Made by a program: the position numbers and the translations under genes | Assembly: GCA_023150295.1 (NCBI GenBank) | Contig: JAKLLE010000033.1 | Coordinates: 1-38,043 of the forward strand | From: Giesbergeria sp. | Lineage (GTDB): Bacteria > Pseudomonadota > Gammaproteobacteria > Burkholderiales > Burkholderiaceae_C | Length of the DNA stretch: 38,043 nt | Direction: 5' to 3' | In this document: piece by piece, positions 10,003 through 37,908 of the stretch | How positions within the stretch are numbered: the stretch's first letter is position 1 | Layout of the letters: each line of letters starts with the position of its first letter | The notes under the pieces: model-generated | The model's input: the letters and a program-made list of their open reading frames with translations, nothing else | Databases searched by the model: none | What the model was told of the DNA's origin: nothing

Positions 10003-10105
10003 GCCGCCGCGCAAGGGCCGCCCCGCCGCGCTGGCGGCGTCCCCCTTCCCGCATCGCGCAGCGAGGCGAGAGAAGGGGGAAGGCGCGCAGCGTCACAGGG
10101 GGTTG
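10003..10105 (-). repeat. Family-B three-hairpin element, copy 1 (downstream of lpxC)
   Basis: Hairpin 1 is GCCGCC-GCGC (10003-10012) with GCGC-T-GGCGGC (10028-10038) around a conserved 15-base loop. Hairpin 2 is CCCCCTTC (10041-10048) with GAAGGGGG (10072-10079). Hairpin 3 is GGCGC-GCA-GCGTC (10082-10094). It ends a few bases from the lpxC stop, so it would be in the 3' end of that transcript. Confidence 0.85.
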
Positions 10106-10112
10106 TTTCATG

Positions 10113-11036
10113 TCACCAGGCGCGCGCGGGTTGCGCGAAGCCGGTGGGAGCGAGGCGCTCGTTGTCGAAAGTGACGATCTCCCAGGCCTCCGGGTGCGCC
10201 TCCAGCTCCCGCAACAGCAGGTTGTTGAGCGCGTGACCTGAGCGGAAGGCGCTGTAGGCTGCCAGCAAAGGCTTGCCGACGAGGTACAGATCCCCCATGG
10301 CATCGAGGATCTTGTGCTTGACGAATTCATCGTCGTAGCGCAAACCGTCGGCGTTGAGCACCTTGTAGTCGTCCATGACGATGGCGTTGTCCAGCCCACC
10401 GCCCAGGGCCAGGCCACTGGCACGCATCATCTCCACGTCCTTGGTGAAGCCGAAGGTGCGCGCGCGGGCGATGTCGCGGCTGTAGCTGCCCGTTCCCAGG
10501 TCGAACTCGAAGCACTGCCCGGTGGAATCCACCGCCGGGTGCGCAAAGTCGATCTCGAAGCGCAGCTTGAAGCCATGGTAGGGATCGAGCCGCGCCCACT
10601 TGGCCTGCGCGCCCTCACCCTGGCGCACTTCCACCGGCTGCTTGACGCGAATGAAGCGCCGCGGCGCGTTCTGCAAGGCAATGCCTGCGCTCTGCAACAG
10701 GAACACAAACGAGGCCGAGGAGCCGTCGAGAATGGGCACTTCTTCGGCGGTGATGTCCACATACAGGTTGTCCACGCCCAGACCAGCGCAGGCCGACATG
10801 AGGTGCTCTACCGTGTGCACCCGCGCGTCACCCACCGAGATGGTCGATGCCATGCGGGTATCTGTCACCGCCAGGGTGGACACTGGAATATCCACCGGCT
10901 CGGGCAGATCAATGCGCCGAAACACGATGCCGGTGTCGGGCTGCGCAGGGCGCAGGGTCAACTCCACGCGCTGGCCGCTGTGCAGGCCCACGCCCACCGC
11001 GCGGGTGAGGGACTTGAGGGTACGTTGCGCAAGCAT
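10113..11036 (-). CDS. lpxC: UDP-3-O-acyl-N-acetylglucosamine deacetylase LpxC
   Basis: The 307-aa zinc amidase catalyses the committed step of lipid A synthesis in the cytoplasm. The zinc ligands are visible as H78 in HTVEH, H241 in VKHKILD and D245 in the same helix. The general acid/base histidine is H268 (SGHALNN). The length matches the family (305 in E. coli). It is the last gene of the dcw cluster, after ftsZ, as is usual in beta- and gammaproteobacteria. A 218-bp gap containing a family-B element separates it from ftsZ, so it may also have a separate promoter. In E. coli the protein level is set by proteolysis; nothing here shows that directly. Confidence 0.98.
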
Positions 11037-11144
11037 CCCGCGATTTTAGTGCGGCTGGCCCTCGGTCGCAGCACCATCTGGGCTATGGCCTTGATAGAAA
11101 ACGAGTTCCACTGGCGTCCGAAGAGGGCGCGGCCCCCACCAGCA

Positions 11145-11247
11145 GACACCGCGCAAGGGCCGCCCCGCCGCGCTGGTGTCGTCCCCCTTCCCGCATCGCG
11201 CAGCGAGGCGAGAGAAGGGGGAAGGCGCGCAGCGCCACAGGGGGTTG
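11145..11247 (-). repeat. Family-B three-hairpin element, copy 2 (between ftsZ and lpxC)
   Basis: Hairpin 1 has arms GACACC/GGTGTC (11145-11150, 11175-11180) around the same inner GCGC stem and loop as copy 1. Hairpin 2 is CCCCCTTC/GAAGGGGG. Hairpin 3 is GGCGC-GCA-GCGCC (11224-11236). It starts about seven bases beyond the ftsZ stop. The outer arm differs from copy 1 but still pairs perfectly. Confidence 0.85.
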
Positions 11248-11254
11248 CTCCCTG

Positions 11255-12487
11255 TCAATCTGCCTGCTTGCGCAGGAAGGCCGGGATCTCCAGATCGTCC
11301 ATGCCGCCAGACACCAGCGCATCGACCCGCGCCGCGGCCTGCGTGCGGTTGGTGCGCCACACACTGGGCACCGCCATGTTGCCGTAGTCGGCGCCGCCAG
11401 CGGGAGCCGCCATGCCAGAAGCCATGCCCCCAGCGGCCATGCCGTTGCCCACCATGGGGTACGCCATGTTGTCGGTACCGGTGCGCAGGCCGCCCTGGAC
11501 CACCGAAATGGGCTGGCGCCGCGCGTTGGCACGGGACAGGCCCGTGGCCACCACCGTGACGCGCAGTTCGTCACCCAGGCTGTCGTCGTAGGCAGCACCG
11601 TAGATGACATGTGCATCGGGCGATGCGTAGGCGTTGATGGTGCTCATGGCCAGGCGCGATTCGGACAGCTTGAGGCTGCCACGCGCCGCCGTGACCAACA
11701 CCAGCACGCCCTTGGCGCCGGAGAGGTCGATGCCTTCGAGCAGCGGGCAGGCCACGGCCTGCTCGGCGGCGATGCGTGCGCGGTCCGGCCCGCTGGCGGT
11801 GGCCGTGCCCATCATGGCCTTGCCGGGTTCGCCCATCACGGTGCGCACGTCTTCAAAGTCCACGTTCACATGGCCGTACTCGTTGATGATCTCGGCAATG
11901 CCGCCCACGGCGTTTTTGAGCACGTCGTTGGCGTGGGCAAAGGCTTCGTCCTGGGTGATGTCGTCACCCAGCACTTCCAACAGCTTCTCGTTGAGCACCA
12001 CGATCAGCGAATCGACATTGGCTTCCAGTTCAGCCAGGCCGTTGTCGGCGTTTTGCATGCGGCGGCCACCTTCCCAGTCGAAAGGCTTGGTCACCACGCC
12101 CACGGTGAGGATACCCATCTCCTTGGCCACACGCGCGATCACCGGGGCCGCGCCCGTACCCGTGCCGCCGCCCATACCGGCGGTGATGAAAAGCATGTGC
12201 GCGCCTTCAATGGCTGCGCGGATTTCCGCTTCGGCTGCCTCAGCGGCTTCGCGGGCCTTCTCGGGCTTGCTGCCTGCACCCAGGCCCGTGCCACCGAGCT
12301 GAACCACACGGTGCGCCGTGCTGCGCGCCAGGGCCTGTGCATCGGTGTTGGCGCTGATGAACTCCACGCCCTGCACGCTGCGCGCAATCATGTGCTCAAC
12401 GGCATTGCCACCGCCGCCGCCCACGCCGATCACCTTGATCTGGGTGCCCTGGTTGAAGTCTTCGGCTTCGATCATTTCAATGGTCAT
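11255..12487 (-). CDS. ftsZ: Cell division GTPase FtsZ
   Basis: The 410-aa tubulin homologue polymerises into the Z-ring at midcell. The N-terminal GTPase domain carries the glycine-rich VIGVGGGGGNAV and the tubulin signature GGGTGTG (residues 106-112). A variable alanine/glycine/methionine-rich linker (about 325-390) is followed by the conserved tail DDLEIPAFLRKQ, which binds FtsA and ZipA. AGGAG lies upstream of the ATG. It follows ftsA after 164 bases, a gap that may hold an extra promoter. The start and length are standard for the family. Confidence 0.98.
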   Translation of the reverse strand: MTIEMIEAEDFNQGTQIKVIGVGGGGGNAVEHMIARSVQGVEFISANTDAQALARSTAHRVVQLGGTGLGAGSKPEKAREAAEAAEAEIRAAIEGAHMLFITAGMGGGTGTGAAPVIARVAKEMGILTVGVVTKPFDWEGGRRMQNADNGLAELEANVDSLIVVLNEKLLEVLGDDITQDEAFAHANDVLKNAVGGIAEIINEYGHVNVDFEDVRTVMGEPGKAMMGTATASGPDRARIAAEQAVACPLLEGIDLSGAKGVLVLVTAARGSLKLSESRLAMSTINAYASPDAHVIYGAAYDDSLGDELRVTVVATGLSRANARRQPISVVQGGLRTGTDNMAYPMVGNGMAAGGMASGMAAPAGGADYGNMAVPSVWRTNRTQAAARVDALVSGGMDDLEIPAFLRKQAD

Positions 12488-12651
12488 CTTGCAGCTCCTC
12501 TTTCATCAATTCTCAAATGGGGTTCAGGTTCTTGTCTGGAAACGGTGTCAATCTCGGAGACTCGCGGGCGGTGGCGGTCCAGCACTGCGCCAGCGCCCGC
12601 GCAGTCTTCGTTGCGGGCTGGCCCGCGAAAGCCACAAGGGAAAGTTCATGG
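12488..12651 (-). promoter_or_regulatory. ftsA-ftsZ spacer with a possible ftsZ promoter
   Basis: On the minus strand a perfect TTGACA (complement of 12546-12551) occurs about 60 bases before the ftsZ ATG, but no good -10 lies 16-18 bases further on. A GCCCGC/GCGGGC hairpin is present around 12594-12617. This is the largest gap inside the division part of the cluster apart from those holding mobile repeats. Confidence 0.3.
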
Positions 12652-13881
12652 TCAGAAGTTCCCCACGATGAAGTCCTTGAGTCGGCCAAAGACCGACTGC
12701 ACGGCGCCGCCCTTGTGCGCCACCTTGAAGCCCCGTAGCCGGGCCAGGCGAGCCTCTTCGAGCAGGCCCATGACCGTGGCGGCGCGCGGCTGGGCCACCA
12801 TGTCGGCCAGCGCGCTCGAATACTTCGGAATGCCCCGGCGCACCGGCTTGAGGAAGATGTCTTCGCCCAGTTCCACCATGCCCGGCATGACCACGCTGCC
12901 GCCGGTGAGCACGATGCCCGAGGACAGCACTTCCTCGTAGCCCGACTCACGGATGACCTGCTGCACGAGCGAGAAGATTTCCTCGACGCGCGGCTCGATC
13001 ACACCCGCCAGCGCCTGCTTGCTGAGCATGCGCGGCCCCCGGTCGCCCAGGCCCGGCACCTCGACCTGCGCCTCGGGATCGGCCAGCAATTGCTTGGCAA
13101 ACCCGCTTTCGACCTTGATGTCCTCGGCGTCCTTGGTGGGGGTGCGCAGTGCCATCGCAATGTCGCTGGTGATGAGGTCACCCGCGATCGGAATGACGGC
13201 CGTGTGGCGGATTGCGCCACCGGTGAAGATGGCCACATCCGTGGTACCCGCACCAATGTCCACCAATGCCACGCCCAGTTCGCGCTCGTCGTCCGTCAGC
13301 ACGGCCTGGCTGCTGGCCAGCGGGTTTAGCAGCAGTTGCTCCACTTCCAGCCCACAGCGGCGCACGCACTTGATGATGTTCTCGGCCGCGCTTTGCGCGC
13401 CGGTCACGATGTGTACCTTGGCTTCGAGGCGAATGCCGCTCATGCCGATGGGCTCCTTCACGTCCTGCCCATCGATGACGAACTCCTGCGGCTCCACCAG
13501 CAGCAATCGCTGGTCGCTGGAAATGTTGATGGCCTTGGCCGTCTCCACCACGCGCGCGACATCGGCAGCGGTGACTTCCTTGTCCTTGACGGCCACCATG
13601 CCGCTGGAATTGATGCCCCGGATATGGCTGCCCGTGATGCCGGTATAGACCCGCTGGATCTTGCAGTCGGCCATCAGCTCGGCCTCTTTCAGCGCCTGCT
13701 GGATGCTTTGCACCGTGGCGTCGATATTGACCACCACGCCACGCTTGAGGCCGTTGCTCGGTGCCACACCCAGGCCTGCCAGCTTGAGCTCGCCGCCGGG
13801 CAGCACCTCGGCCACCACGGCCATGATCTTGGCCGTGCCGATGTCCAGCCCTACCACCACATCTTTGTATTCTCTTGCCAT
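12652..13881 (-). CDS. ftsA: Cell division protein FtsA (actin-like membrane tether)
   Basis: The 409-aa ATP-binding protein anchors FtsZ filaments to the membrane and recruits later divisome proteins. The actin-type phosphate loop is seen in VGLDIGTAKIMAVV (about residues 9-22) and the second ATP motif in VDIGAGTTDVAIF. The SHI region of the 1C domain follows the first. The C-terminus (SVFGRLKDFIVGNF) is the amphipathic membrane-targeting helix. The length fits (420 in E. coli). It follows ftsQ after 34 bases and is part of the same minus-strand operon. Confidence 0.98.
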   Translation of the reverse strand: MAREYKDVVVGLDIGTAKIMAVVAEVLPGGELKLAGLGVAPSNGLKRGVVVNIDATVQSIQQALKEAELMADCKIQRVYTGITGSHIRGINSSGMVAVKDKEVTAADVARVVETAKAINISSDQRLLLVEPQEFVIDGQDVKEPIGMSGIRLEAKVHIVTGAQSAAENIIKCVRRCGLEVEQLLLNPLASSQAVLTDDERELGVALVDIGAGTTDVAIFTGGAIRHTAVIPIAGDLITSDIAMALRTPTKDAEDIKVESGFAKQLLADPEAQVEVPGLGDRGPRMLSKQALAGVIEPRVEEIFSLVQQVIRESGYEEVLSSGIVLTGGSVVMPGMVELGEDIFLKPVRRGIPKYSSALADMVAQPRAATVMGLLEEARLARLRGFKVAHKGGAVQSVFGRLKDFIVGNF

Positions 13882-13915
13882 ATGCGTCTTGTGCCTTTTG
13901 TTCTGAGCGTGCCTG

Positions 13916-14713
13916 TCAGCGGCGCACGGTTGCGCCCTGCTGCCCCTCCAGCACCGTGGTCACCCCGCGCAGGCGCAGCGCGTAGCCGCTGCTGTGGCGC
14001 AGGTCTGCCGATTCCAGCGCGTCCGCGCGGCGCCCGTACTTGCCCGCCACCTGGGTGAGCGTGCGCACGAAGCGCTGCAGGCGCAGGGCCAGCTCTTCAT
14101 CGCTGCCTGCACCCAATTCGATCTCGGCCCCGCTGTCCAGCACCATGCGCCAGCTCCCCCGGCGGTTGAACTCCAGCACCTGGATGTCCCAGTCGAGTGG
14201 CTCCACGATGTGCTGCAGCTTGGCGTGCATTTGCAGCATCTGCGCCGAAGCCCCCTCGGGCCCGGCCAGGCGTGGCAACAGGTCGTATTCGGGATCGTCG
14301 GCGCTAGCATCGAACACCTCGCCGAAGTCATTCACCATCGTGGTGCTCGACTCCGCACCCCAGTGGGCGACGGGCCGGTGCTCTTCCAGCAGCACGCGCA
14401 GCGTTCCGGGGTACTGGCGCTGCACCTGTGCCTTGCGCACCCAGGGCACCTGCTCAAAGGCGGCGCGGGCAGCCTGCAGGTTGAGCGTGAAGAAATTGCC
14501 TGTCAGGCGAGGTGCCACGTTGGCCCGCAGGGTCACGGCGCTGTGGTGCGCCACATCGCCCTCCACCACCAGCCGCGTGATGGCAAAGGCGGGCAGGCGC
14601 ATGAGCCAACCCGCCAAGGCTGCCAGCACCAGGGCGGCGCAGCCCATGAACAGGGCCGTGGCGGTCCAGTTCATGAGGCGCACGTCCAGCGGTGCGGGCA
14701 GGGTTTGGTTCAC
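13916..14713 (-). CDS. ftsQ: Cell division protein FtsQ
   Basis: The 265-aa bitopic membrane protein belongs to the FtsQ-FtsL-FtsB subcomplex. The start is the GTG at 14713, overlapping the ddl stop (GTGA), because a strong AGGAGG lies just upstream. The frame could extend to 14770, but that part lies within ddl. A single membrane helix (about residues 18-40) is followed by a POTRA domain ([18 protein letters not shown]) and the beta domain. The family role is to link FtsA/FtsK to FtsI/FtsW in the periplasm. Confidence 0.95.
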
Positions 14714-15717
14714 GCCTGAACCTCCTGCGACGGCGAGTCGAGCGCGGCGCTGGCCAGAAGGCGCAGGCACAGGTCTTCATAGCTGATGCCTGCGGCGCGC
14801 GCCGACATGGGCACCAGCGAGTGGCCGGTCATCCCCGGCGAGGTGTTCATCTCCAGCAGGAAGGGCTTGCGGTCGCTGGCACGCACCATCAGGTCGGCGC
14901 GCCCCCAGCCGCGGCAACCCAGCGCACGGTAGGCGGCCAGCACGATGCGCTGGATCTCGCGTTCCTCGGCCTCGGGCAGCCCACTGGGACACTGGTATTT
15001 CACGTCGTCGGTGAAGTACTTGTTCTGGTAGTCGTACGCGCCGTCCGGCGCATTGATGCGTATCACCGGCAGCGCCGCGGCATCTGCGCCCTGGCCCAGC
15101 ACCGGGCAGGTGACTTCCTCACCTTCGATGAATTCTTCGCACAGCACGTCGGGGTCGTAACGTGCCGAAAGCTGCACAGCGTCCTGCATGTCCGAATACC
15201 CCTGCACCTTGGTCACGCCGATGGACGAACCCTCGCGCGGCGGCTTGACGATCAGCGGCAGACCCAGCTCATCGGGCACAGTACGCACGGTCTCGCGGTT
15301 CTGGCGCTCGGGCGCCAGCCAGACGTAGCGTGGCGTGGGCAGGCCCTCGGCCAGCCAGACGCGCTTGGTCATCACCTTGTCCATGGCGATGCTGGACGCC
15401 ATGACGCCTGAGCCGGTGTAGGGAAGGCCCAGCAACTCCAGCGCGCCCTGCACCGAGCCGTCTTCCCCATGCCGCCCGTGCAGCGCGATGAAGCAGCGCG
15501 CATAGCCAGCGCGCTTGAGTTCGCACAGTTCGGTGTGCGCAGGATCAAAGGCGTGGGCGTCCACACCGCGCGCGCGCAGCGCCTGCAGCACGCCCGCACC
15601 GGACATGAGCGAGACCTCGCGCTCGGCCGAGGTGCCGCCCATGAGCACGGCCACCTTGCCCAGCGCGGCCGGGGTGGGCAGAAGCTGCCCGGTGGTCTTG
15701 GCATCCAATGCGGTCAT
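14710..15717 (-). CDS. ddl: D-alanine--D-alanine ligase
   Basis: The 335-aa ATP-grasp enzyme makes D-Ala-D-Ala for addition by MurF. The N-terminal [17 protein letters not shown] motif, the ATP-grasp segment [14 protein letters not shown] and the metal-binding region [16 protein letters not shown] are complete. The placement between murC and ftsQ is that of ddlB. It overlaps murC by 4 bases (ATGA) and ftsQ by 4 bases. The length is slightly above that of E. coli DdlB because of an N-terminal extension of about 20 residues and a short tail. A second ddl elsewhere cannot be excluded. Confidence 0.97.
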
Positions 15718-17147
15718 TGCGCTTTCTCCTCCTGCCCTCTTTGCTCTGTATTTGATAGCAACTCAACCAGTCTGCCCGGCATGTTTCCGATGGAGCCTGC
15801 GCCCATGCACAGCACCACATCGCCGTCCTGCGCCATGGCTGCGATGGCCTGGGGCAGATCGGCCACGTCCTCCACGAACACGGGCTCCACACGCCCTGCC
15901 ACGCGCAGCGCGCGCGCCAACGACCGGCCATCGGCCGCCACCACCGGCGCCTCGCCTGCGGCATAGACTTCGGTCAGCAGCACGGCATCGGCGCTACCGA
16001 TGACCTTGACGAAGTCCTCGAAGCAGTCGCGTGTGCGCGTGTAGCGGTGCGGCTGAAAGGCCAGCACCAGGCGCCGACCGGCAAAGGCACCGCGCGCAGC
16101 CGCCAGCGTGGCCGCCATTTCCACAGGGTGGTGGCCGTAGTCATCGATCACGGTGAAGCGCCCGCCATCCTTGGCGGGCAGGTCGCCATAGCCCTGAAAG
16201 CGCCGCCCGACGCCCCGGAAGCTGGCCAACGCACGCAGCACGGCCTCGTCGGGAATGTTCAGCTCCACCGCCACGGCAATGGCCGACAGGGCGTTGAGCA
16301 CGTTGTGCTCGCCCGCCAGGTTGAGCACCACCTCCAGGTCGGGCAGCGTCACGCCATTGCGGCGCTGCACGGTGAAGTGCATCTGCGCCCCCACAGCCCG
16401 CACGTTGACGGCGCGCACCTGCGCGTCCTCCGAAAAACCGTAGCTGGTGATGGGGCAGGACACCTCGGGCACGATCTCGCGCACCGCCGGGTTGTCGATG
16501 CACAGAATGGCCGTGCCGTAGAACGGCATGCGGTGCAGGAAATCGACAAAGGCCTTTTTGAGCCGCGCGAAGTCGTGGCCGTAGGTCTCCATGTGGTCGG
16601 CGTCGATGTTGGTCACGACGGCCATCACGGGCAGCAGGTTGAGGAACGAGGCGTCGGATTCGTCAGCCTCGACCACGATGTAGTCGCCGCTGCCCAGCTT
16701 GGCGTTGGCCCCGGCACTGTTCAGGCGCCCGCCGATGACGAACGTGGGATCCAGTTCCCCCTCGGCCAGCACGCTGGTGACCAGGCTGGTGGTGGTGGTC
16801 TTGCCATGCGTGCCTGCAATGGCAATGCCGCGCTTGAGGCGCATGAGCTCGGCCAGCATGAGCGCCCTCGGCACCACGGGGATTTTCTTTTCGCGCGCGG
16901 CCAGCACCTCGGGGTTGTCGCTTTTGACAGCGGTGGAGGTGACCACCGCATCCGCTCCGACAATGTGCGCTGCCGCATGTCCCACAAAGGTCTGCATGCC
17001 CAGGCCCTGCAGGCGGCGCAGGGTGGCACTGTCGGACAGATCCGAGCCCGAAATGCGGTAGCCGAGGTTGAACAGCACCTCGGCAATGCCGCTCATGCCC
17101 GAGCCACCGATGCCGACGAAATGGATGTGGCGGATAGCGTGTTTCAT
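15714..17147 (-). CDS. murC: UDP-N-acetylmuramate--L-alanine ligase MurC
   Basis: The 477-aa Mur ligase adds L-Ala to UDP-MurNAc. The Rossmann motif [16 protein letters not shown] lies near the N-terminus, and the P-loop GTHGKTTTT begins near residue 115. The central and C-terminal ligase domains are complete. The last 13 codons ([10 protein letters not shown]...) resemble a truncated family-A repeat rather than a standard MurC tail. It overlaps ddl by 4 bases. On the murG side the normal 4-base overlap has been replaced by a 266-bp palindromic element, yet the start ATG remains intact. Confidence 0.97.
15741..15760 (+). repeat. Partial family-A repeat at the 3' end of murC
   Basis: TTGCTCTGTATTTGATAGCA matches the last 20 bases of the family-A repeat (compare copy 3, CGCTCCGTATTTTGTAGCA). 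The GCGCTTAT hairpin half is absent. It encodes LLSNTEQ in MurC, close to MLQNTER encoded by copy 3 in MurG. Confidence 0.5.
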
Positions 17148-29444: not shown

Positions 29445-30767
29445 TTACAAAATGAAGCGCGAAAGGTCTTCGTCCTGCGACAGCGCCTGCAGGCGCGCAT
29501 CGACGTAGGCTGCGTCGATGACCACCGTCTGGCCCGCTCGGTGCGCGGCGTCAAAGCTCACCTCGTCGAGCAAACGCTCCATCACCGTGGACAGGCGGCG
29601 CGCGCCGATGTTCTCGGTGCGTTCGTTGACCTCGAAGGCAATGTGCGCCAGGCGGGTGATGCCTTCGGGCGTGAACTCCAGCGCCACGCCCTCGGTGGCC
29701 AGCAGCGCCTGGTACTGGCGCACCAGCGAGGCGTGCGTCTGCGTGAGGATGGCTTCAAAGTCCTGCACCGAAAGCGAGTCGAGCTCCACGCGGATCGGAA
29801 AGCGCCCCTGCAACTCGGGAATCAGGTCGCTGGGCTTGGCCAGGTGGAAAGCTCCGGAGGCAATGAACAGGATATGGTCGGTCTTGACCATGCCGTACTT
29901 GGTGTGCACCGTGGTGCCCTCCACCAGCGGCAGCAGGTCGCGCTGCACGCCCTGGCGTGACACATCGGCGCCGCTGCTCTCCTGGCGCGCGGCCACCTTG
30001 TCGATCTCGTCGATGAACACGATGCCGTTCTGCTCGGCGCTGAGCAGGGCGCGCTGCTTGATCTCTTCCTCGTTGACCAGCTTGGCCGCCTCTTCCTCGA
30101 CGAGCTGGCGCCGGGCTTCGGCAATGCTGAGCTTGCGCGTCTTGCGCTTGCCCTGCCCGATCTGGCTGAACATGCCGCGCAACTGCTCGGCCATGTCCTC
30201 CATGCCTGCGGGGCCCATGATTTCGAGCTGTGGGCGGGCCTCGGCCAGGTCGATCTCGATTTCCTTGTCGTCGAGTTGGCCCTCGCGCAGCTTCTTGCGG
30301 AACACCTGGCGTGCGGTGCTGTCGGGCGGCGGCTCGCTGCCGGGCGTGCGCGCCACGGGGATGAGCACGTCCAGGATGCGCTCCTCGGCCGCGTCTTCGG
30401 CGCGCGTGCGCACCTGGCGTGTCTGTACCTCGCGCTCCTGCTTGACGGCCACTTCCATCAGGTCGCGGATGATGGTGTCCACGTCCTTGCCCACATAGCC
30501 CACCTCGGTGAACTTGGTGGCTTCGACCTTGATGAAGGGCGCATCGGCCAGGCGCGCCAGGCGGCGCGCGATTTCGGTCTTGCCCACGCCCGTGGGGCCG
30601 ATCATGAGGATGTTCTTGGGCGTGATCTCGTGGCGCAGCGGCTCCTGCACCTGCTGGCGGCGCCAGCGGTTGCGCAGCGCAATGGCCACGGCCCGCTTGG
30701 CCTTGGACTGGCCGACGATGTGGCGGTCCAGCTCGGAGACGATTTCCTGGGGGGTCATGGAAGACAT
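29445..30767 (-). CDS. hslU: ATP-dependent protease ATPase subunit HslU
   Basis: The 440-aa AAA+ unfoldase feeds substrates to the HslV peptidase. Walker A is GPTGVGKT (residues 57-64), Walker B is [10 protein letters not shown], and the I-domain insertion lies between them (about 110-240). The C-terminus LSRFIL is the tail that docks into HslV. The ATG at 30767 is preferred to an upstream TTG, although the ribosome binding site (GGAA) is weak. A family-A repeat lies in the 84-bp gap behind hslV. Confidence 0.97.
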
Positions 30768-30788
30768 GGAGAGAAATTCCAATCAAAT

Positions 30789-30839
30789 CGGCACATAGCG
30801 CTTATAGAATAAGCGCAAACAGCTATTATTTTGATAGCA
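30789..30839 (+). repeat. Family-A repeat, copy 5 (between hslV and hslU)
   Basis: CGGCACATAGCGCTTAT, AGAAT, AAGCGCAAACAGCTATTATTTTGATAGCA is the best-preserved copy. GCGCTTAT pairs with ATAAGCGC, and GCTAT pairs with ATAGC. It fills most of the gap between hslV and hslU. Confidence 0.88.
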
Positions 30840-30851
30840 AACGAAATTCCC

Positions 30852-31415
30852 TTAAAGGGTTTCAATCGTGTGGTGCATGTTGGTGTAGATGCACAGCTCA
30901 CCGGCAATGGCCAGGGATTTGCGCACGATGTCTTCAGCGCCCAGTTCGGTGTTGGTCAGCAGCGCCTTGGCGGCCGAATGGGCATAGGCCCCACCCGAGC
31001 CGATGGCCACGATGCCTTGTTCGGGCTCCAGCACATCGCCGTTGCCGGTGATGATGAGGGAGGCCTCGCGGTCGGCCACGGCGAGCATGGCCTCCAGACG
31101 GCGCAGCACGCGGTCGGTGCGCCAGTCCTTGGTCAGCTCGATGGCGGCGCGCACCAGGTGGCCCTGGTGCTTGTCCAGCTTGGCTTCAAAGCGTTCGAAC
31201 AGCGTGAAGGCGTCGGCCGTGGCGCCGGCAAAGCCCGCCAGCACCTTGCCATGGTGCAGCTTGCGCACCTTGCGCGCCGTGCCCTTGACGACGATATTGC
31301 CCAGCGTGACCTGGCCGTCGCCGCCAATGGCCACCTGCACGCCCTGCGGGGTTTGGCGGCGCACGCTGAGGATGGTGGTTCCGTGGAACACCGGGGATTC
31401 GTTGGATGCGGTCAT
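30852..31415 (-). CDS. hslV: ATP-dependent protease peptidase subunit HslV
   Basis: The 187-aa threonine peptidase forms the double hexamer of the HslUV protease. The start at 31415 gives [12 protein letters not shown] before TTILSVRR. Cleavage after HG would expose T13 as the N-terminal nucleophile. E. coli HslV carries only Met there, while a short propeptide is common in betaproteobacteria. The GDGQVTLGN and [17 protein letters not shown] motifs are standard. It is transcribed ahead of hslU. Confidence 0.96.
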
Positions 31416-31504
31416 AGGGCGCTTAGGTGGGGGCGCCCACCGCCATTGCAAGTCTGTGCTCCATTGCTCCTCGCGCTACCCACCCTGTCACTCCCCAAGC
31501 CAGG

Positions 31505-31606
31505 GCTCCCGCGCAAGGGCCGCCCCGCCGCGCTGGGAGCGTCCCCCCTCCGCAAGCGAAGCGAAGCAGAGAGGGGGGAAGGCCCGCAGGGCCTCAGGGG
31601 GGAGCA
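31505..31606 (-). repeat. Family-B three-hairpin element, copy 3 (between the STAS-like gene and hslV)
   Basis: Hairpin 1 arms are GCTCCC/GGGAGC (31505-31510, 31535-31540). Hairpin 2 is CCCCCCTC/GAGGGGGG (31543-31550, 31571-31578). Hairpin 3 is GGCCC-GCA-GGGCC (31581-31593). All three stems differ from copies 1 and 2 with the pairing kept. It begins two bases after the stop of the STAS-like gene. Confidence 0.85.
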
Positions 31607-31608
31607 AG

Positions 31609-33354
31609 CTAATTTTTTCGCGGCAGCACCCAGGCATGCTCGTTGACACCGAGCACATTGAACAGCACGGCCACCAGGCGGTGCAGGTTGTGGAACTGCA
31701 CTTCGCGCCCCTGGGCCTGCTGCTGGGCCGCCCAGTTAAGCACCGAGCCCGCAGCGGTGAAGTCAATGCGGATGAGCTTGTCGCACGGGATGGCCAGCGG
31801 CTGGCCCGCAGGCACATGGTCCTGCATGCCTTCGAGCAGGTGGGTGGCGTCGCCCTCGATGTGGCCGGTGAGCCCGGCCAGCGCAGGCACCGAATCGCCA
31901 AAACCCGTGAGCGGTGCCGGGGTGGTGCTGTCTTTCCAGTGCGGCCGCGCAACCAGGTCCTGGGCCGGGGCAGGCGCAGGAGCGGCTTCGGGGGTGGAAT
32001 CGTCGCTGTAGCCGCACAGAGGGTTGGCCCAGGAAGGCGGCGACACTTCGTAGGTGACGCAGTAATCCAAGGCCACCATTTCGAACTCGTCGGCCTGGCC
32101 CATGAAGCGCAGCACCGCCATGCGCAGGCGCCACCATTCGGGGTCGGTCTCGCGGTCACCCGACTGGGTGCGCTCCTGCAGCAAGGTCAGCAGCGCTTGC
32201 GAGCCCGTGAACACAAACTGCCCCTTCATGTCCGCCCAGCGGGTGAACTCGTTGGCCAATGCGGTCAGCGCCGCGTCTTCAATGGACTTGAGCCGCGTCC
32301 AGGTCAGCGTCCAGGGCGAGGCCGAGCGATTGATGGATGCCTGCAGCGCAGCCACCGACTGCAGCGTCATGGCGGCTGGTGCGTTCCAGCTGAATTCACG
32401 CTGGGGCACTGCGGTGGCCTCTGCCTTCACGGCAGCCTGCAGGCCCAATTGTTCGGGGATGGAGAACCACAGCGGCGCAGAGCGCGCAAAGCGCCCGGCA
32501 AAGTCGATGGCCAACGCATCAAAACGGTCTTGCTGGCCTGTGGCGCGGTACAGGTCGAACAGCGTCATCCAGATCTCGAACTGGGCATCGGCTTCGTCGG
32601 CGCTGTGGCGCTCCAGCACCTCCAGCAGGCCTGCCTCTGCGCCCGCGTAATCGCCGTTGGCAAAGCGGATGGCGGCTTCTTCGAGGTCGGGTTCGTGCAC
32701 GAATTTCTCCAAGGCCGGTGCGGCCGGTGGTGCCGAGGTACCTGCCCCTCCCATGTTCCATGTGGCCGCATCGGGCTCCTCCTGCGGCAGGGAGGTTTCC
32801 TGTGCGGCCAGGCTATCGCCCGCAAACAGCGGCTCGGGCGCCGTGCGTGCGGGAGGGGTGGGTTGCAGAGCCAGGGGAGCCGTCGGGGCGTAGGCATTGG
32901 GGTGGGCCGGAATGGTGGGCGCGTCTGCCAGGGCAGCGCCCGCTTGCGCAGGGGCCGCACCTTCCGGGTTGTCACCCGCCTGTTTGCTCTTCCACCACTG
33001 CATGGACATCTGCGCCTCGATCTCGTCGATCTTCTTGATCGTGACGGCACGCTCGCCGGGCGAGGTGAGGCTGCTCTGGAAGAACGAGGGTCGGGCCGCC
33101 GGGTCGGCCGTGCGCTGGCCGCTCAGGGCGTCGCGCTGGCGCAGTTTGCGCAGTTGATCGAACTCACGGCGGCGCACAAAGTCGTTGCGCCGCTTGCGCT
33201 CGATCATCTCCTTGAGCATTTGCTTGCTGTACTGGCTCTCCTTGTCGTCCTGGATGGAATCCAGCTCCGACCAGTTGACCGTGGGGTTGCGCACGAAACG
33301 CACCACCTTGGACAGGAGGCCACCGCCGGAGGAGGGGTTGTCTTCCTTGCTCAT
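31609..33354 (-). CDS. Protein of unknown function with TPR-like middle and STAS-like C-terminal domain
   Basis: The ATG at 33354 gives 581 residues; the frame opens at a TTG (33378) without support. In order I see a charged, Arg/Lys-rich helical N-terminus (about 25-110, MLKEMIERKRRNDFVRRREF) and an Ala/Pro-rich linker (about 120-220). A helical repeat follows (about 225-300, AAIRFANGDYAGAEAGLLEVLE, resembling TPRs of the FimV type). The C-terminus (about 490-581) has the pattern of an MlaB/STAS domain, ending IDFTAAGSVLNWA and FNVLGVNEHAWVL. No signal peptide or membrane helix is seen, so it is likely cytoplasmic. It lies between dksA and hslV, all on the minus strand. I know of no experimental function. 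Confidence 0.8.
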   Translation of the reverse strand: MSKEDNPSSGGGLLSKVVRFVRNPTVNWSELDSIQDDKESQYSKQMLKEMIERKRRNDFVRRREFDQLRKLRQRDALSGQRTADPAARPSFFQSSLTSPGERAVTIKKIDEIEAQMSMQWWKSKQAGDNPEGAAPAQAGAALADAPTIPAHPNAYAPTAPLALQPTPPARTAPEPLFAGDSLAAQETSLPQEEPDAATWNMGGAGTSAPPAAPALEKFVHEPDLEEAAIRFANGDYAGAEAGLLEVLERHSADEADAQFEIWMTLFDLYRATGQQDRFDALAIDFAGRFARSAPLWFSIPEQLGLQAAVKAEATAVPQREFSWNAPAAMTLQSVAALQASINRSASPWTLTWTRLKSIEDAALTALANEFTRWADMKGQFVFTGSQALLTLLQERTQSGDRETDPEWWRLRMAVLRFMGQADEFEMVALDYCVTYEVSPPSWANPLCGYSDDSTPEAAPAPAPAQDLVARPHWKDSTTPAPLTGFGDSVPALAGLTGHIEGDATHLLEGMQDHVPAGQPLAIPCDKLIRIDFTAAGSVLNWAAQQQAQGREVQFHNLHRLVAVLFNVLGVNEHAWVLPRKN

Positions 33355-33399
33355 GATGGCTTGCGTACTGCGCGGCAAAGGCTCAAAGGGAGTTCCCCG

Positions 33400-34113
33400 T
33401 CAATCACCAAACATCTTTTGCTTGAGCTCGCGGCGCTGTTGCGCTTCCAGCGAGAGCGTGGCCGTGGGTCGGGCCAGCAGGCGGCCCACGCCAATGGGTT
33501 CGCCGGTTTCGTCGCAGTAACCGTAGTCGCCAGCGTCGATGCGCGAGATGGACTGCTCGATCTTCTTGAGCAACTTGCGCTCGCGGTCACGCGTGCGCAG
33601 CTCCAGGGCGTGTTCTTCTTCGATGGTGGCTCGGTCTGCCGGGTCGGGCACGACCACGGTGTCCTCACGCAGATGCTCGGTGGTTTCACCTGCGTTGTTG
33701 TGCATGTCCTGCTTGAGTTGCACCAGCTTGTGGCGGAAGTAGGCCATCTGGACGTCGTTCATGTACTCGCTGTCGGGCATGGCGAGGATGTCGGCGTCGG
33801 TCAGTTCCTCCAAGGGCTTGGTCTTCCAGTGGTTGGCCAGCTTGGGGTCCTTTTTAGGAGCCGCAGCACGCGGGGCTTGCAGGGTGGTGGGCATGGTATT
33901 CGTGTAACTCGCTTTGGCAGCCGTCGAAGCGACGGACTGCTGAATGGATGGTACGGTCAATTGGGCCAGGCGGGAAGAAGGCCGAGCACTGCGCACGGGC
34001 AAGCCGTCAGGCGACGCTGGAGCCGCCTTGGCGCTGACTTTGGCCGGGGCCGGTGAGGCCGCGGTGGAAGACGCCTTTGCAGGTGCCTTGGGTTTGCTGG
34101 GTGCAGCGTTCAC
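33400..34113 (-). CDS. dksA: RNA polymerase-binding transcription factor DksA, zinc-ligand-poor form with N-terminal extension
   Basis: The 237-aa product contains the DksA coiled coil with tip motif DPADRA (D157, D160, A162) and LELRTRDRERKLLKKIE. Such proteins act in the RNA polymerase secondary channel with ppGpp. Of the four zinc cysteines of E. coli DksA only C200 remains; the other positions are T203, S221 and A224. The start is GTG at 34113, supported by AGGAG nine bases upstream. It adds about 80 Ala/Pro/Lys-rich residues before the conserved core. A TATACAAT motif near 34211-34219 (minus) may be its -10. A COG0523 GTPase gene lies immediately upstream. Confidence 0.92.
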   Translation of the reverse strand: MNAAPSKPKAPAKASSTAASPAPAKVSAKAAPASPDGLPVRSARPSSRLAQLTVPSIQQSVASTAAKASYTNTMPTTLQAPRAAAPKKDPKLANHWKTKPLEELTDADILAMPDSEYMNDVQMAYFRHKLVQLKQDMHNNAGETTEHLREDTVVVPDPADRATIEEEHALELRTRDRERKLLKKIEQSISRIDAGDYGYCDETGEPIGVGRLLARPTATLSLEAQQRRELKQKMFGD

Positions 34114-34277
34114 GTCCTGTCTCCTCGCGGTACGGGCTTCCCGCTGCGATGGCGGTGAAGCGCCACCTGCGGGAGGTTTGATCGTAGTATGCCCTTGGCT
34201 TTACCGGGGCGCGATTGTATAGGCACAGCCTTGCCCGGGCGCAGGCGTTGTGCATTCCCCACACCGCAGGTGCAGCA

Positions 34278-35378
34278 TCAGCCCACCAGGCACTGGTCCA
34301 GCCCCTGCTCCAGGATGTCGCGCGGCAGCTCGATGCCGATGAACACCATCTTGCTCTGGCGCTTCTCGCCCTCGGCCCACTGCGGCCCCAGGTCGCTGCC
34401 CATGAGCTGGTGCACGCCCTGGAAGATGACCTTGCGCTCGGTGCCCTTCATGTGCAGCACACCCTTGTAGCGCAGCATGCGCGGGCCGTAGATGTTGACG
34501 ATGGCGCCCAAAAAATCCTCCAGCTTGGCCGGATCGAACGCACGCTCGGCGCGGTAGACAAAACTCTTGACGTCATCGTCATGGTGGTGGTGGCGCCCCT
34601 TCTGGTGCGAGGGGTGGTTGCAGGGCTCGCCGGGCGCATGGTCGTGGTGATGGTGGTGCCCATGGTCATGGCCGTGTTCGCACTTCCCGTGGTCATGGTC
34701 GCAGTGGCTGTGGTCGTCCTCGTCCTTAAGGAAGTCGGGGTCGATGTCCAGCTTGGCGTTGAGGTTGAAGCCACGCAGGTCCAGCACCTCAGTGAGGGGC
34801 ACCTCGCCGAAGTGCACCGCCTTGATCGGCGCGCGCGGGTTCATGTGCTTGAGGCGGTGGGTGAGCGCATCGACGTCGTCTGCACTGACCAGGTCGGTCT
34901 TGGACAGGAAGATCTGGTCAGCAAAGCCCACCTGGCGGCGTGCCTCCTGGCGGTCGTCGAGCTGCTGCTGGGCATGCTTGGCATCCACCAGGGTAAGGAT
35001 GGAGTCCACCAGGTAGGTTTCGGCGATCTCGTCGTCCATGAAGAAGGTCTGCACCACCGGGCCGGGGTCGGCCAGGCCCGTGGTCTCGATGACCACGCGG
35101 TCAAAGGCCAACATGCCCTTGCGGCGCTTGGCGGCCAGCAGTTGCAGGGTTTCACGCAGGTCTTCGCGGATGGTGCAGCAGATGCAGCCGTTGCTCATCT
35201 GCACGATCTGTTCCTCGCTGTCGGTCACGAGGATGTCGTTGTCGATGTTCTCCTCGCCGAACTCGTTTTCGATGACGGCGATCTTCTGGCCGTGGACTTC
35301 GGACAGCACGCGCTTGAGCAAGGTGGTCTTGCCCGAGCCCAGGAAGCCGGTGAGGATGGTGACGGGGATGAGGGACAT
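34278..35378 (-). CDS. COG0523/CobW-family metallochaperone-type GTPase
   Basis: The 366-aa G3E GTPase starts MSLIPVTILTGFLGSGKTTLL, with the Walker A motif at 11-18. C65-I-C67-C68 (GCICC) is the family metal site, SKTD is the guanine-specificity motif, and the CobW C-terminal domain is present (about 280-360). A very His/Asp-rich loop (about 228-275) will bind metals such as zinc. Family members deliver zinc or other metals to client proteins, some under Zur control; others serve cobalamin synthesis. The metal here is not determined, and no Zur box was seen upstream. An in-frame extension to 35465 lacks support. Confidence 0.92.
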   Translation of the reverse strand: MSLIPVTILTGFLGSGKTTLLKRVLSEVHGQKIAVIENEFGEENIDNDILVTDSEEQIVQMSNGCICCTIREDLRETLQLLAAKRRKGMLAFDRVVIETTGLADPGPVVQTFFMDDEIAETYLVDSILTLVDAKHAQQQLDDRQEARRQVGFADQIFLSKTDLVSADDVDALTHRLKHMNPRAPIKAVHFGEVPLTEVLDLRGFNLNAKLDIDPDFLKDEDDHSHCDHDHGKCEHGHDHGHHHHHDHAPGEPCNHPSHQKGRHHHHDDDVKSFVYRAERAFDPAKLEDFLGAIVNIYGPRMLRYKGVLHMKGTERKVIFQGVHQLMGSDLGPQWAEGEKRQSKMVFIGIELPRDILEQGLDQCLVG

Positions 35379-35433
35379 GGGGAGCCTTGGGGGAAAAACG
35401 GGGGGGAACCCAAAAACTGTAGCCGAGCTGTCA

Positions 35434-35453
35434 AGCCCCTGCGCGCAGGGGCT
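35434..35453. repeat. 20-bp perfect palindrome upstream of the COG0523 gene
   Basis: AGCCCCTGCGCGCAGGGGCT is a perfect inverted repeat lying between the rlmI end and the COG0523 start. It has no adjacent T-run, so it could be a terminator stem without a tail or an operator. On the minus strand it is followed directly by TTGACA, a possible -35 element. Confidence 0.5.
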
Positions 35454-35472
35454 GCATGGTTTCAAGGCATTT

Positions 35473-35524
35473 TTGGCCTCTGGCGCTTATGCAGCAAGCG
35501 CAAGTAGCTATTATTTTTATAGCA
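35473..35524 (+). repeat. Family-A repeat, copy 6 (after rlmI)
   Basis: TTGGCCTCTGGCGCTTAT, GCAGC, AAGCGCAAGTAGCTATTATTTTTATAGCA is a well-preserved copy ending a few bases from the rlmI stop codon. Both small hairpins can form. Confidence 0.88.
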
Positions 35525-35532
35525 CTCGACCT

Positions 35533-36753
35533 TTACTTGCGCATCACGGCCAGGCCCTTGAGGTATTCCCCTTCGGGGAATTCCAGCGTCATGGGATGGT
35601 CGGGCGCCCCACCCAGGCGCTCCAGGATGTAGCCATCCACCCCGGCATCGGCCCCGGCCGAGGCGACGATCTTGTGAAACAGGTCGGCGCTGATGCCGCC
35701 CGAGCACGAGAAGGTGTAAAGCACCCCGCCGGGCTCCAGCAGCTGCAGCGCCAGGCGGTTGATGTCCTTGTAGGCGCGTGCGGCGCGCTCGGCGTGCGCG
35801 GCGGTGGGGGCAAACTTGGGCGGGTCGAGCACGATGGCGTCAAAAGTGCGCCCCTCCTTGAGGAACTGGCGCAGCGAGGCGTTCACGTCGGCATCGAGGA
35901 AGGTGGCACGCGCGGCGTCAAAGCCGTTGAGCGCGACATGCGCGCGGGCGCGCTCCAGCGCCGGGCCCGAGGAGTCGATCGACGTTACCTCGCCATCCTC
36001 CACGCCCGCCGCGCGCTGGCCCGCCAGCGCCGCTACCGAAAAGCCCCCGGTATAGCAGTAGCAGTTGAGCACGCGGCGCAGGTGCAGGCGCTGCACACAG
36101 TCGGCAAAGCGCTTGCGGCTGTCGCGTTGGTCCAGGTAAAAGCCGGTCTTGTGGCCCTCGGCGATGTTGAGCGTCAGGCGCCACTGGTGCTCGTGGATCT
36201 CCAGCTCCAGCGGCGGCGACTCGCCACCCTCCGCCGGGCCGCCACGCAGCCAGCCCGTGCTGCTCTCCAACCCTTCGAGCTGGCGCACGCTGGCGTCCGA
36301 GCGCTCGTACAGGCGCACCAGGCCCGTGGCCTGCAAGAGCGCATCGGCCAGCACACCCTTCCAGCGCTCCGTGCCCGCGCTGGTGAACTGCGCCACCAGC
36401 GTGTCGCCATAGCGGTCCACGATGAGGCCGGGCAGACCATCCGATTCGCCGTGCACCAGGCGCACGCCGTTGCTTTGTATGTCAAATCGGCCTCTGGCGC
36501 TTATTGCACGAGCGCAAGCAGCTATGAAAAAAGGAGCATCAATACGCTGCGCTTCGTCAAAACTCCACACCCGCGCGCGGATGCGCGAACTCGGGCTGAA
36601 CGCCGCCCAGGCCAGAAACTGGCCCTCGTGCGACTCCACGCGCACCGTCTCGCCGCTGTCACCCCCGCCCTTGGCGATGGCGCTTTCAAAGATCCAGGGG
36701 TGGCGACGCTGCAGCGAGCGCTCTTTGCCGGGTCGAAGTCGAATCGTTTTCAT
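35533..36753 (-). CDS. rlmI: 23S rRNA (cytosine-1962-C5)-methyltransferase RlmI
   Basis: The 406-aa enzyme has an N-terminal PUA domain (LRPGKERSLQRRHPWIFESAI) and a C-terminal SAM-binding Rossmann domain. The SAM-binding motif is NCYCYTGGFSVAAL. IVLDPPKFAP and TFSCSGGI, the latter with the likely catalytic cysteine, follow. It matches the COG1092 family. Residues about 72-90 (PFFIAACARAISARGRFDI), between the PUA and middle domains, are encoded by a family-A repeat. It lies 26 bases after xerC on the same strand. Confidence 0.93.
   Translation of the reverse strand: MKTIRLRPGKERSLQRRHPWIFESAIAKGGGDSGETVRVESHEGQFLAWAAFSPSSRIRARVWSFDEAQRIDAPFFIAACARAISARGRFDIQSNGVRLVHGESDGLPGLIVDRYGDTLVAQFTSAGTERWKGVLADALLQATGLVRLYERSDASVRQLEGLESSTGWLRGGPAEGGESPPLELEIHEHQWRLTLNIAEGHKTGFYLDQRDSRKRFADCVQRLHLRRVLNCYCYTGGFSVAALAGQRAAGVEDGEVTSIDSSGPALERARAHVALNGFDAARATFLDADVNASLRQFLKEGRTFDAIVLDPPKFAPTAAHAERAARAYKDINRLALQLLEPGGVLYTFSCSGGISADLFHKIVASAGADAGVDGYILERLGGAPDHPMTLEFPEGEYLKGLAVMRK
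36487..36538 (+). repeat. Family-A repeat, copy 7 (inside rlmI)
   Basis: TCGGCCTCTGGCGCTTAT, TGCAC, GAGCGCAAGCAGCTATGAAAAAAGGAGCA is a full copy in the family orientation. Its first 19 bases are almost identical to copy 6, which lies about 1 kb away. It is read on the minus strand in the same frame as copy 4 in murD. Confidence 0.82.
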
Positions 36754-36779
36754 GGCCGGAATTGTCGCCTGCCCCTGGA

Positions 36780-37730
36780 CTACTTGCGCCGCGCCCGCGG
36801 GTGCGCCTGGTCGTACACCTTGGCCAGGTGCTGGTAGTCTAGCCGGGTATAGACCTGCGTGGTGGTGATGCTGGCGTGGCCCAGCAACTCTTGCACGGCA
36901 CGCAGGTCGCCGCTGCTTTGCAGCAGGTGGCTGGCAAAGGAGTGGCGCAGCATGTGCGGGTGCACCGGCGTGCTCAACCCGGCGCGTTGGCTGCGCTGAC
37001 GCAGGCGCAGCCAGATGGACTGGGCCGACAGGCGCGTACCGCGCTGGCCCAGGAACAGCGCGGCGTCCAGCCGGCCGGGCGCAAACGGCGTGGCGCGCTG
37101 CGCCAGCCAGGCCTGCAGCGCCTGCACCGCCGCCGTGCCCAGGGGCAGGCTGCGGCGCTTGCTGCCCTTGCCGCGCACATGCACTTCGGCGGCCTGCAGG
37201 TCGATCCAGCCGCGCCCCAGGCGCTCGGTGTCGGGGCCGGGGGCCACGTCCAGGCCTTCGAGTTCGCCCACGCGCAGCCCGCAGCCGTACAGCAGTTCGA
37301 CCATGGCGGCATCGCGCGCCTCCAGCCAGGGGTCGGCGCCGTCTTCGGCATGTTCGGCCAGACGCACAGCATCATCCACGCCCAGTGCCTTGGGCAAGGG
37401 CTTGGGGGCCTTGGGCGCACGCACGCCCTGCACGGGGTTGTGCTCGGTCAGCCCCTGGCGCGCGGCCCACAGGTAAAAGCCGCGCCAGCCCGAGAGGATG
37501 AGCGCTATGCCGCGCCCGCTGCGCCCGCCTGCATGCATCTGCGCCACGGCGCGGCGGATGTGCGCGGTCTGCAGCTGCAACAGCGGCAAACCGACCTGTT
37601 CGCCCACCTGCTGCAGGCGCTGCAGATCCAACGTGTAGAGGGTGACGGTGCGCGCGGCCAGGCGCTTTTCCACGCGCACATGCTCCAGGTAGCGCAGGGC
37701 TTCGGGGGGCAGTGGCGCGAGGGCGGTCAT
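36780..37730 (-). CDS. xerC: Tyrosine recombinase XerC
   Basis: The 316-aa recombinase resolves chromosome dimers at dif with XerD. All catalytic residues are in place: R153 (CGLRVGEL), K188 (GKGSKRR), H259 and R262 (HMLRHSF), H285 (LLGHASI) and Y294 (VYTRLD). The N-terminal SAM-like DNA-binding domain spans about residues 8-95. The length is normal for XerC. XerC is favoured over XerD or a phage integrase by general similarity (CGLRVGEL...HMLRHSFASHLLQSSGDLR) and by the absence of phage genes. Upstream lies a family-B repeat instead of the usual operon partner. Confidence 0.92.
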   Translation of the reverse strand: MTALAPLPPEALRYLEHVRVEKRLAARTVTLYTLDLQRLQQVGEQVGLPLLQLQTAHIRRAVAQMHAGGRSGRGIALILSGWRGFYLWAARQGLTEHNPVQGVRAPKAPKPLPKALGVDDAVRLAEHAEDGADPWLEARDAAMVELLYGCGLRVGELEGLDVAPGPDTERLGRGWIDLQAAEVHVRGKGSKRRSLPLGTAAVQALQAWLAQRATPFAPGRLDAALFLGQRGTRLSAQSIWLRLRQRSQRAGLSTPVHPHMLRHSFASHLLQSSGDLRAVQELLGHASITTTQVYTRLDYQHLAKVYDQAHPRARRK

Positions 37731-37812
37731 ACTTTGTCCGTCAGTGGGGTCTTCGCTCGACCACGCCGGGCATTGTCAACAGCCTGCGATACGGCCGCTG
37801 CCCAAGCCAGCA

Positions 37813-37908
37813 GCCACCGCGCAAGGGCCGCCCCGCCGCGCTGGTGGCGTCCCCCTGCCCGCAACGCGCAGCGGTGCGAGAGCGGGGGGAAGCGGCGCAG
37901 CCGCTCAG
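37813..37908 (-). repeat. Family-B three-hairpin element, copy 4 (between xerC and the IS110-family transposase)
   Basis: Hairpin 1 arms are GCCACC/GGTGGC (37813-37818, 37843-37848). Hairpin 2 is CCCCCTGC/GCGGGGGG with one wobble (37851-37858, 37882-37889). Hairpin 3 is AGCGGC-GCA-GCCGCT (37891-37905). Similarity to the other copies stops abruptly after CTCAG at 37908, where the others continue with a G-run. Confidence 0.85.

What the first reader, a model, noticed from the sequence alone, without database searches (positions are those of the whole stretch)
10003..37908. Four ~100-bp elements with three covarying hairpins (family B)
Copies at 10003, 11145, 31505 and 37813 conserve the loop AAGGGCCGCCCCGCC and the GCA loop, while all three stems change in compensatory fashion. 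Stem 1 is GCCGCC/GGCGGC, GACACC/GGTGTC, GCTCCC/GGGAGC or GCCACC/GGTGGC. Stem 2 is CCCCCTTC/GAAGGGGG, CCCCCCTC/GAGGGGGG or CCCCCTGC/GCGGGGGG. Stem 3 is GGCGC/GCGTC, GGCGC/GCGCC, GGCCC/GGGCC or AGCGGC/GCCGCT. Such covariation implies a selected structure, either an RNA or a single-stranded DNA mobile element. Copies 1-3 lie within 10 bases of a stop codon.
Basis: partly seen in the sequence, partly recalled or inferred. Interest (0 to 1): 0.8.

Follow-up and report, generated by a model that had tools for sequence, protein, structure and literature searches.

The report
Hairpin repeats hugging bacterial stop codons
About a hundred copies of a short hairpin-rich DNA repeat sit in one fixed direction just after the stop codons of genes in this bacterium, and comparison with a close relative suggests that copies replace one another, so it looks like a new kind of REP-type repeat rather than a dedicated RNA gene.

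Summary
The four copies are real and belong to a genome-wide family. The exact 15-base loop occurs 64 times (reversed control 0), and a covariance model finds 99 matches at 98 places. Pairing changes are mostly two-sided (190 cells, 71 in shuffles). The element is longer than reported (about 120 bp, some 170 bp with its tail) and polar. In 83 of 99 matches a coding stop codon lies -14 to +16 nt from its start on one strand, in 5 of 99 on the other; 42 of 3000 random points pass. Named carriers are mainly Comamonadaceae. Presence and sequence vary between close relatives: at 8 of 23 shared sites the relative's copy is closer to another copy in our genome than to its counterpart, and 25 of 28 paired two-sided changes fall there. 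G·U does not exceed A·C on the gene strand. So the covariation does not by itself show selection for RNA structure. An IS110-type insertion sequence sits in the element in 6 of 6 cases. Best reading: a new, large, polar REP-like repeat family in 3' UTRs; mobiliser and function unknown.

The parts
9982..10104 (-). Element copy 1, downstream of lpxC (gene strand is minus)
   Evidence: R1 match 125.8 bits; lpxC (PF03331) stop 8 nt upstream; of 10 parsed loci (own and 9 relatives) the own genome and G023 carry it after lpxC, 8 relatives do not (read by eye)
10003..10038 (-). Hairpin H1 of copy 1: arms 10003-10012 and 10028-10038, conserved loop 10013-10027
   Evidence: sequence; helix 4: 98.8% of cells paired, 5 of 10 pairs with two-sided changes
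10041..10079 (-). Hairpin H2 of copy 1 with inner stem and internal loop
   Evidence: sequence; helices 2 and 3
10082..10094 (-). Hairpin H3 of copy 1 (GCA/TGC loop)
   Evidence: sequence; helix 1
10113..10115 (-). Stop codon of lpxC next to copy 1
   Evidence: ORF table
11124..11246 (-). Element copy 2, between ftsZ and lpxC
   Evidence: R1 match 125.0 bits; ftsZ by PF00091 and PF12327; the copy at the same site in G023 is 75% identical although upstream and downstream flanks are 97%
31485..31603 (-). Element copy 3, 5 nt after the stop of the ORF 31609-33378 (a STAS-domain protein)
   Evidence: R1 match 106.8 bits; STAS_2 hit; inner H2 hairpin differs as a block in G023 while H3, outer H2 and H1 stems are the same
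37792..37914 (-). Element copy 4, its gene-side end joined to an insertion sequence
   Evidence: R1 match 108.7 bits; IS joint
37915..38043 (-). 3' end of an insertion sequence of IS110 type, running off the contig end
   Evidence: 5 copies in own genome, all joined to an element; 95% identical tail in G013 belongs to a full IS whose protein hits PF01548 and PF02371; the 34-35 aa tail itself hits no Pfam family

Best explanation
It is a non-autonomous, multi-hairpin, REP-like repeat family of Comamonadaceae chromosomes. SHOWN: about a hundred copies in one genome; one orientation, most copies starting within about 16 nt of the upstream gene's stop codon; presence and sequence differ between close relatives; copies or single hairpins differ in blocks at the same site, often resembling another copy of the family more; an IS110-type IS is found only inside it in the copies seen. 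INFERRED: copies arise by insertion at gene 3' ends with help of an enzyme encoded elsewhere, and are rewritten by recombination or template switching between copies, which keeps stems paired without compensatory point mutations at each locus. INFERRED: when transcribed, the hairpins form a structured 3' UTR touching the terminating ribosome, acting as a 3'-end block or mRNA stabiliser and perhaps slowing termination, as reported for E. coli REPs within 15 nt of a stop codon.
For: 64 exact cores, reversed control 0; 99 model matches. Stop codon within -14..16 nt: 83 of 99 in own genome against 5 of 99 on the other side and 42 of 3000 random points; 77 of 89 in named or other-genus loci (12 of 101 matches dropped for short flank). 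At 20 convergent gene pairs the gene-strand side is nearer in 19. Presence variation after lpxC and ftsZ and two sites empty in G023. Paralog closer than ortholog at 8 of 23 sites, one of them through a deletion in our copy. IS110-type IS in the element 6 of 6. One copy as blastn query: no phage record, 2 of 72,556 plasmid records. REPs close to ORF ends and as IS110 targets are known.
Against: No mobilising enzyme was found. A rough look for a target duplication on 14 copies with a pattern-matched tail gave nothing, and the ends are not exactly known. Tags, size and dimer layout of classical REPs are not met. The fixed orientation is unexplained by random insertion alone. Folding energies of the four copies are mostly not better than shuffled (z -0.84, -3.56, -1.09, -0.13). 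At 12 of 23 shared sites the copy is simply conserved, so turnover is not universal. 16 of 99 own and 12 of 89 other matches are not stop-adjacent by this test. No expression data were available.
Confidence: 0.6

Rival explanations
1. A cis-acting structured RNA (3' UTR terminator, attenuator or stability element) kept by selection on the gene-strand RNA at each locus; spread is secondary.
For: One orientation and tight spacing to the stop codon; strong two-sided covariation; conserved loop.
Against: G·U on the gene strand does not exceed A·C: 22 vs 54 (21 vs 33 without one column) in A2, 32 vs 64 (31 vs 39) in A3. At 12 near-identical orthologous sites 9 of 12 paired-position changes leave one copy unpaired. 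Presence after lpxC and ftsZ varies among relatives. No terminator-like site at copies 1 and 2 (0 found, shuffles 1.0).
Confidence: 0.22
2. A single-strand DNA transposon remnant (REP/RAYT or IS200/IS605 type) moved by a Y1 transposase that recognises the hairpins.
For: Palindromes with a conserved bulge in H1 and internal loop in H2; a Y1 gene in 112 of 150 family genomes, own included; empty sites.
Against: The Y1 gene has one match in the genome and no element near it; G003 has 71 exact cores and no Y1 match (70 contigs, 99% complete); GTAG in 3 of 52 copies, no inverted pairs within 600 bp except one overlapping double match.
Confidence: 0.12
3. Covariation by perfect-palindrome correction (template switching in DNA) in a neutral repeat with no function at all; location reflects only where insertions are harmless.
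For: No excess of G·U over A·C; block differences at shared sites; patchy distribution.
Against: Neutral landing does not explain one orientation (83 against 5 of 99) or 19 of 20 at convergent pairs.
Confidence: 0.06

Closest known systems
REP sequences of E. coli and tagged (GTAG/CGTC) REPs of other bacteria
   Same: Palindromic, intergenic, many copies, close to the 3' ends of ORFs, may supply a stop codon, targets of IS110-family ISs (PMC3733652 abstract, passages and sections 15 and part of 17; PMC1525189 passages; PMC12306157 passages).
   Different: About 120 bp or more with three or more hairpins instead of 20-40 bp with one; no unpaired GTAG or CGTC tag; one fixed orientation to the upstream gene; no inverted dimers.
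BRE, Beta-proteobacterial repeat element (Hot et al. 2011, PMC3110155; passages and section 14 seen)
   Same: GC-rich repeat of about 90 bp in Betaproteobacteria including Comamonadaceae; chromosomal, mostly intergenic, presumed mobile.
   Different: BRE counts in two Acidovorax genomes are 1 and 4, it occurs in Bordetella and in tandem arrays, and the words 'stop codon' do not occur in that paper. Its sequence is not in the text held, so identity could not be tested; the two could be related.
MITEs such as Correia/NEMIS elements (features recalled)
   Same: Short non-autonomous repeats that read as RNA hairpins.
   Different: No terminal inverted repeat or target duplication was apparent in a rough test of 14 copies.

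Membership tests
GTAG/CGTC-tagged REP | Unpaired GTAG or CGTC at one end of a single stem of 5-13 bp | tested here: not met
   GTAG in 3 of 52 copies; CGTC in 41 of 52, but it lies between H1 and H2 and its last C opens the C-run that pairs in H2; first pairs are C-G and the inner part is not a 4-5 base loop
GTAG/CGTC-tagged REP | Size 20-40 bp | tested here: not met
   Model of 122 positions; tail of about 40 more bases in some copies
GTAG/CGTC-tagged REP | Located next to ORF 3' ends | tested here: met
   83 of 99 in own genome; 77 of 89 in other loci
REPIN / REP with RAYT | RAYT gene flanked by copies, inverted dimers | tested here: not met
   Y1 gene at C78:22382-22663 has no exact core within L006 and the nearest model match on that contig ends at 9484; no inverted pair within 600 bp except one overlapping double match
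REP-like IS target | An IS110-family IS inserts at a fixed place in the repeat | tested here: met
   5 of 5 own copies join at the first C-run (one, C128, in a long variant that the model did not list) and 1 in G013 at the second; own IS assigned by 95% identity of its 129-base tail
MITE | Terminal inverted repeats and target duplication | tested here: inconclusive
   14 copies with pattern-matched tail: mean shared k-mer of flanks 3.79 against 3.91 shuffled; inverted 4.07 without a control; exact ends not known
BRE | Sequence similarity to the Bordetella repeat | not testable with these tools
   Sequence is only in figure and supplement of PMC3110155, which are not held
Known RNA family | Rfam match at gathering score | tested here: not met
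   Window scan: only RF02278 and RF00059, not at the copies
Intrinsic terminator | GC-rich stem followed by a T-run | tested here: not met
   Copies 1 and 2 only: 0 terminator-like sites in 9900-11350, shuffles mean 1.0; some other copies have a weak hairpin followed by TTTC or TTTT further 3' (by eye)

The most novel reading that the evidence does not exclude
A mobile 3'-UTR module that is inserted specifically at translation stop codons in one orientation by an undescribed RNA- or transcription-coupled mechanism, replacing the old stop and installing its own, with hairpins exchanged as cassettes between copies.
Probability: 0.12. Interest if true: 0.8.

Novelty: new variant of a known kind. 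Interest (0 to 1): 0.5.

Why it matters
It gives a natural set of about a hundred oriented, mostly stop-adjacent hairpin elements in one genome, with empty and swapped sites in close relatives. That makes two open REP questions testable: why such repeats sit next to stop codons, and how families without a linked transposase spread. It also warns that two-sided covariation among paralogous repeats can come from copy replacement and need not mean selection on RNA.

Tried and rejected
Intrinsic terminator: 0 terminator-like sites around copies 1 and 2. Known RNA: no Rfam hit at the copies. RAYT-driven: one Y1 match without elements nearby; none in G003. Integron attC-like site: considered because of the stop-adjacent orientation, rejected by eye, not computed. 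Target duplication: nothing in a rough test of 14 copies. Phage or plasmid cargo: 0 phage records, 2 plasmid records, 7 viral contigs with the 19-base core (the viral contigs were not read). A Pfam scan of the 34-35 aa IS tail gave nothing and the own assembly has no PF02371 match; the IS type was settled from a relative's full copy. Literature: no held paper has the 13-base loop string in its main text; searches gave no description that I could tie to this repeat, BRE (PMC3110155) being the only candidate. Novelty rests on those searches of open-licence papers only; for most listed papers I saw the listing only. Liang 2015 is not held and is known here through passages of PMC12306157.

Full report
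WHAT WAS CLAIMED AND WHETHER IT IS THERE. The four copies are present at the stated places. They read as plus-strand elements, but the neighbouring genes run on the minus strand, so the gene-strand ('sense') element is the reverse complement: a C-run (CCCCCTG), hairpin H3, hairpin H2, hairpin H1 with the loop GGCGGGGCGGCCCTT, then CTGG. The exact 15-base loop occurs 64 times in the 3.69 Mb genome; the reversed pattern occurs 0 times. From the 64, 52 copies of one layout were aligned; 9 had no recognised end, window copy 4 among them, and 3 were long variants. Copies 1 and 2 follow lpxC and ftsZ, copy 3 a STAS-domain gene.

COVARIATION. With 31 pairs, 94.9% of cells are standard pairs. There are 190 cells with two-sided changes (shuffles 70.7, none of 500 as high), and sliding the 3' partners by 1-3 columns leaves at most 62% paired; the number of further pair types is no higher than in shuffles. 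The strongest pair is CG 20, AT 17, GC 13 of 52. RNAalifold agrees on H3, H1 and part of H2. The energies of the four copies are mostly not special for such GC-rich DNA (z -0.84, -3.56, -1.09, -0.13).

CENSUS. A covariance model finds 99 matches at 98 places in the own genome; one is a reverse-strand double (only 150 candidates were scored, so this is a lower bound). In a family sample it finds 41 of 150 genomes, own included, and 35 of 141 genera, again lower bounds because 23 candidates per genome were scored. The exact loop is in 22 of 60 genomes searched, own included, all in the same family. Single 19-base hits in Nocardiopsis and in Elusimicrobiota and Planctomycetes bins look like chance or contamination; the two Elusimicrobiota loci gave no model match, the other two were not tested. 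With one copy as query, no phage record and 2 of 72,556 plasmid records match. Seven viral contigs hold the 19-base core (not read).

POLARITY. Genes were called with a simple codon score trained on the same loci, not taken from an annotation. A coding stop codon lies -14 to +16 nt from the element start on the sense side in 83 of 99 matches and on the other side in 5 of 99, one of these being the reverse-strand double; 42 of 3000 random points pass the same test. Stops used are TGA 59, TAA 13, TAG 11. At 20 convergent gene pairs the sense-side gene is nearer in 19. In named and other-genus loci, 77 of 89 matches behave the same; 12 of 101 were dropped for short upstream sequence. Some misses have a visible cause: insertion sequences, contig ends or long variants.

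TRUE EXTENT. Homology runs past H1 into CTGGCCTGGGCCGCGCC(A/G)G TTTCATGCG and, in 14 copies that my pattern recognised, to about AATGGATMAC, some 40 bases after the model end. The 5' side often reads like TGARRTGRARCA before the C-run, so the stop may be the element's own in some copies (read by eye). Variants exist: a long H2/H3 region of nested C/G-run hairpins, and a module in which GGGCAAAGCCC replaces the H1 loop.

TURNOVER. After lpxC, 2 of 10 parsed genomes (own and G023) carry the element and 8 do not, including G003 whose LpxC is 98% identical; in the empty ones the stop is TAG or TAA, in the occupied ones TGA. After ftsZ, 6 of 10 carry it (20 of 30 loci were not parsed). In 400 kb of G023, 32 of 99 upstream flanks had a hit; 25 sites were aligned: 12 elements are at least 94% identical, 10 are 51-91%, one differs by a deletion, and two sites hold other DNA in G023. 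Two further sites are empty in G023, and at a third (C112) about 1 kb of other DNA lies there; the rest were partial or doubtful hits. At 8 of 23 sites the G023 copy is closer to another copy of our genome than to its counterpart; one of the eight is due to the deletion. Window copies 2 and 3 are among the eight. In copy 3 the inner H2 hairpin is exchanged while the H3, outer H2 and H1 stems are the same.

WHAT THE COVARIATION MEANS. Of 28 two-sided changes with pairing kept between the two genomes, 25 fall at the eight sites just named. At the 12 near-identical sites the paired positions show 9 changes that leave one copy unpaired, 2 one-sided with pairing kept, 1 two-sided. At the other 11 there are 27 two-sided with pairing kept, 6 two-sided unpaired, 22 one-sided that leave one unpaired and 5 one-sided kept (summed). 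If the gene-strand RNA were selected, G·U should outnumber A·C (my expectation). It does not: 22 against 54 in A2 (21 against 33 without one column) and 32 against 64 in A3 (31 against 39 without that column). So stems look renewed by copy replacement or DNA-level correction. This does not exclude an RNA role in young copies.

ENZYMES AND PARASITES. One Y1 (RAYT-like) gene exists, with no element near it. G003 has 71 exact cores and no Y1 match, so this enzyme is not needed to keep the family, although past use is possible. All 5 copies of an IS tail in the own genome join an element at the first C-run; one of these elements (C128) is a long variant that the model did not list. Of 60 genomes searched, one other, G013, has the tail (95% identical). 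There the IS splits the second C-run, and its protein matches PF01548 and PF02371, the IS110 family. REPs are known IS110 targets (PMC1525189, passages).

COMPARISON. Known REPs lie within about 20 bp of ORF 3' ends and can give the stop codon (PMC3733652, section 15). E. coli REPs within 15 nt of a stop are reported to stall ribosomes (as cited in PMC12306157, passages). The present family works like a REP in place and as IS target, but fails the tag, size and dimer features. That paper takes frequent GT pairing in its REPs as a sign of transcription; no such excess was found here. BRE (PMC3110155, section 14) is the nearest named betaproteobacterial repeat and could not be compared by sequence.

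VERDICT. A real, ordinary-in-kind but unusual repeat family: large, multi-hairpin, strongly oriented and partly swapped between close genomes. Mobiliser and effect on expression are not shown.

Noticed in passing
window 37915-38043 and C43, C116, C128, C136 contig ends; L269: An IS110-type IS whose every copy seen (6 of 6) lies inside this repeat family; its transposase is not found in the own assembly (PF02371).
   Followed up: yes
L045, L051, L020, L041, L049, L256: Long variants in which H2/H3 is replaced by nested CCCCTCTCCCC/GGGGAGAGGGG hairpins; at one site the short and long forms face each other in G000 and G023 (site 42).
   Followed up: partly
L087, L094, L057:200-307, L070, L077, L088, L081: Copies that keep the gene-side half but carry another loop module (such as GGGCAAAGCCCGTTCCACGG) in place of H1.
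   Followed up: no
L006: A single Y1 (RAYT-like) gene next to an ORF that looks like glutamate synthase (recalled, no call); Y1 matches in 112 of 150 family genomes, own included.
   Followed up: partly
L041, L009, L263 flanks: Another intergenic palindrome (like AGCGCTTATCC.TCAAGCGCT) near a few copies.
   Followed up: no
window 9615-9734 (-): TPP riboswitch (RF00059).
   Followed up: no
window 2677-2736 (+): Betaproteobacteria toxic small RNA (RF02278).
   Followed up: no
G195:C1 3628273-3628687: Three copies in direct tandem about 147 bp apart, like variable-number repeats.
   Followed up: no
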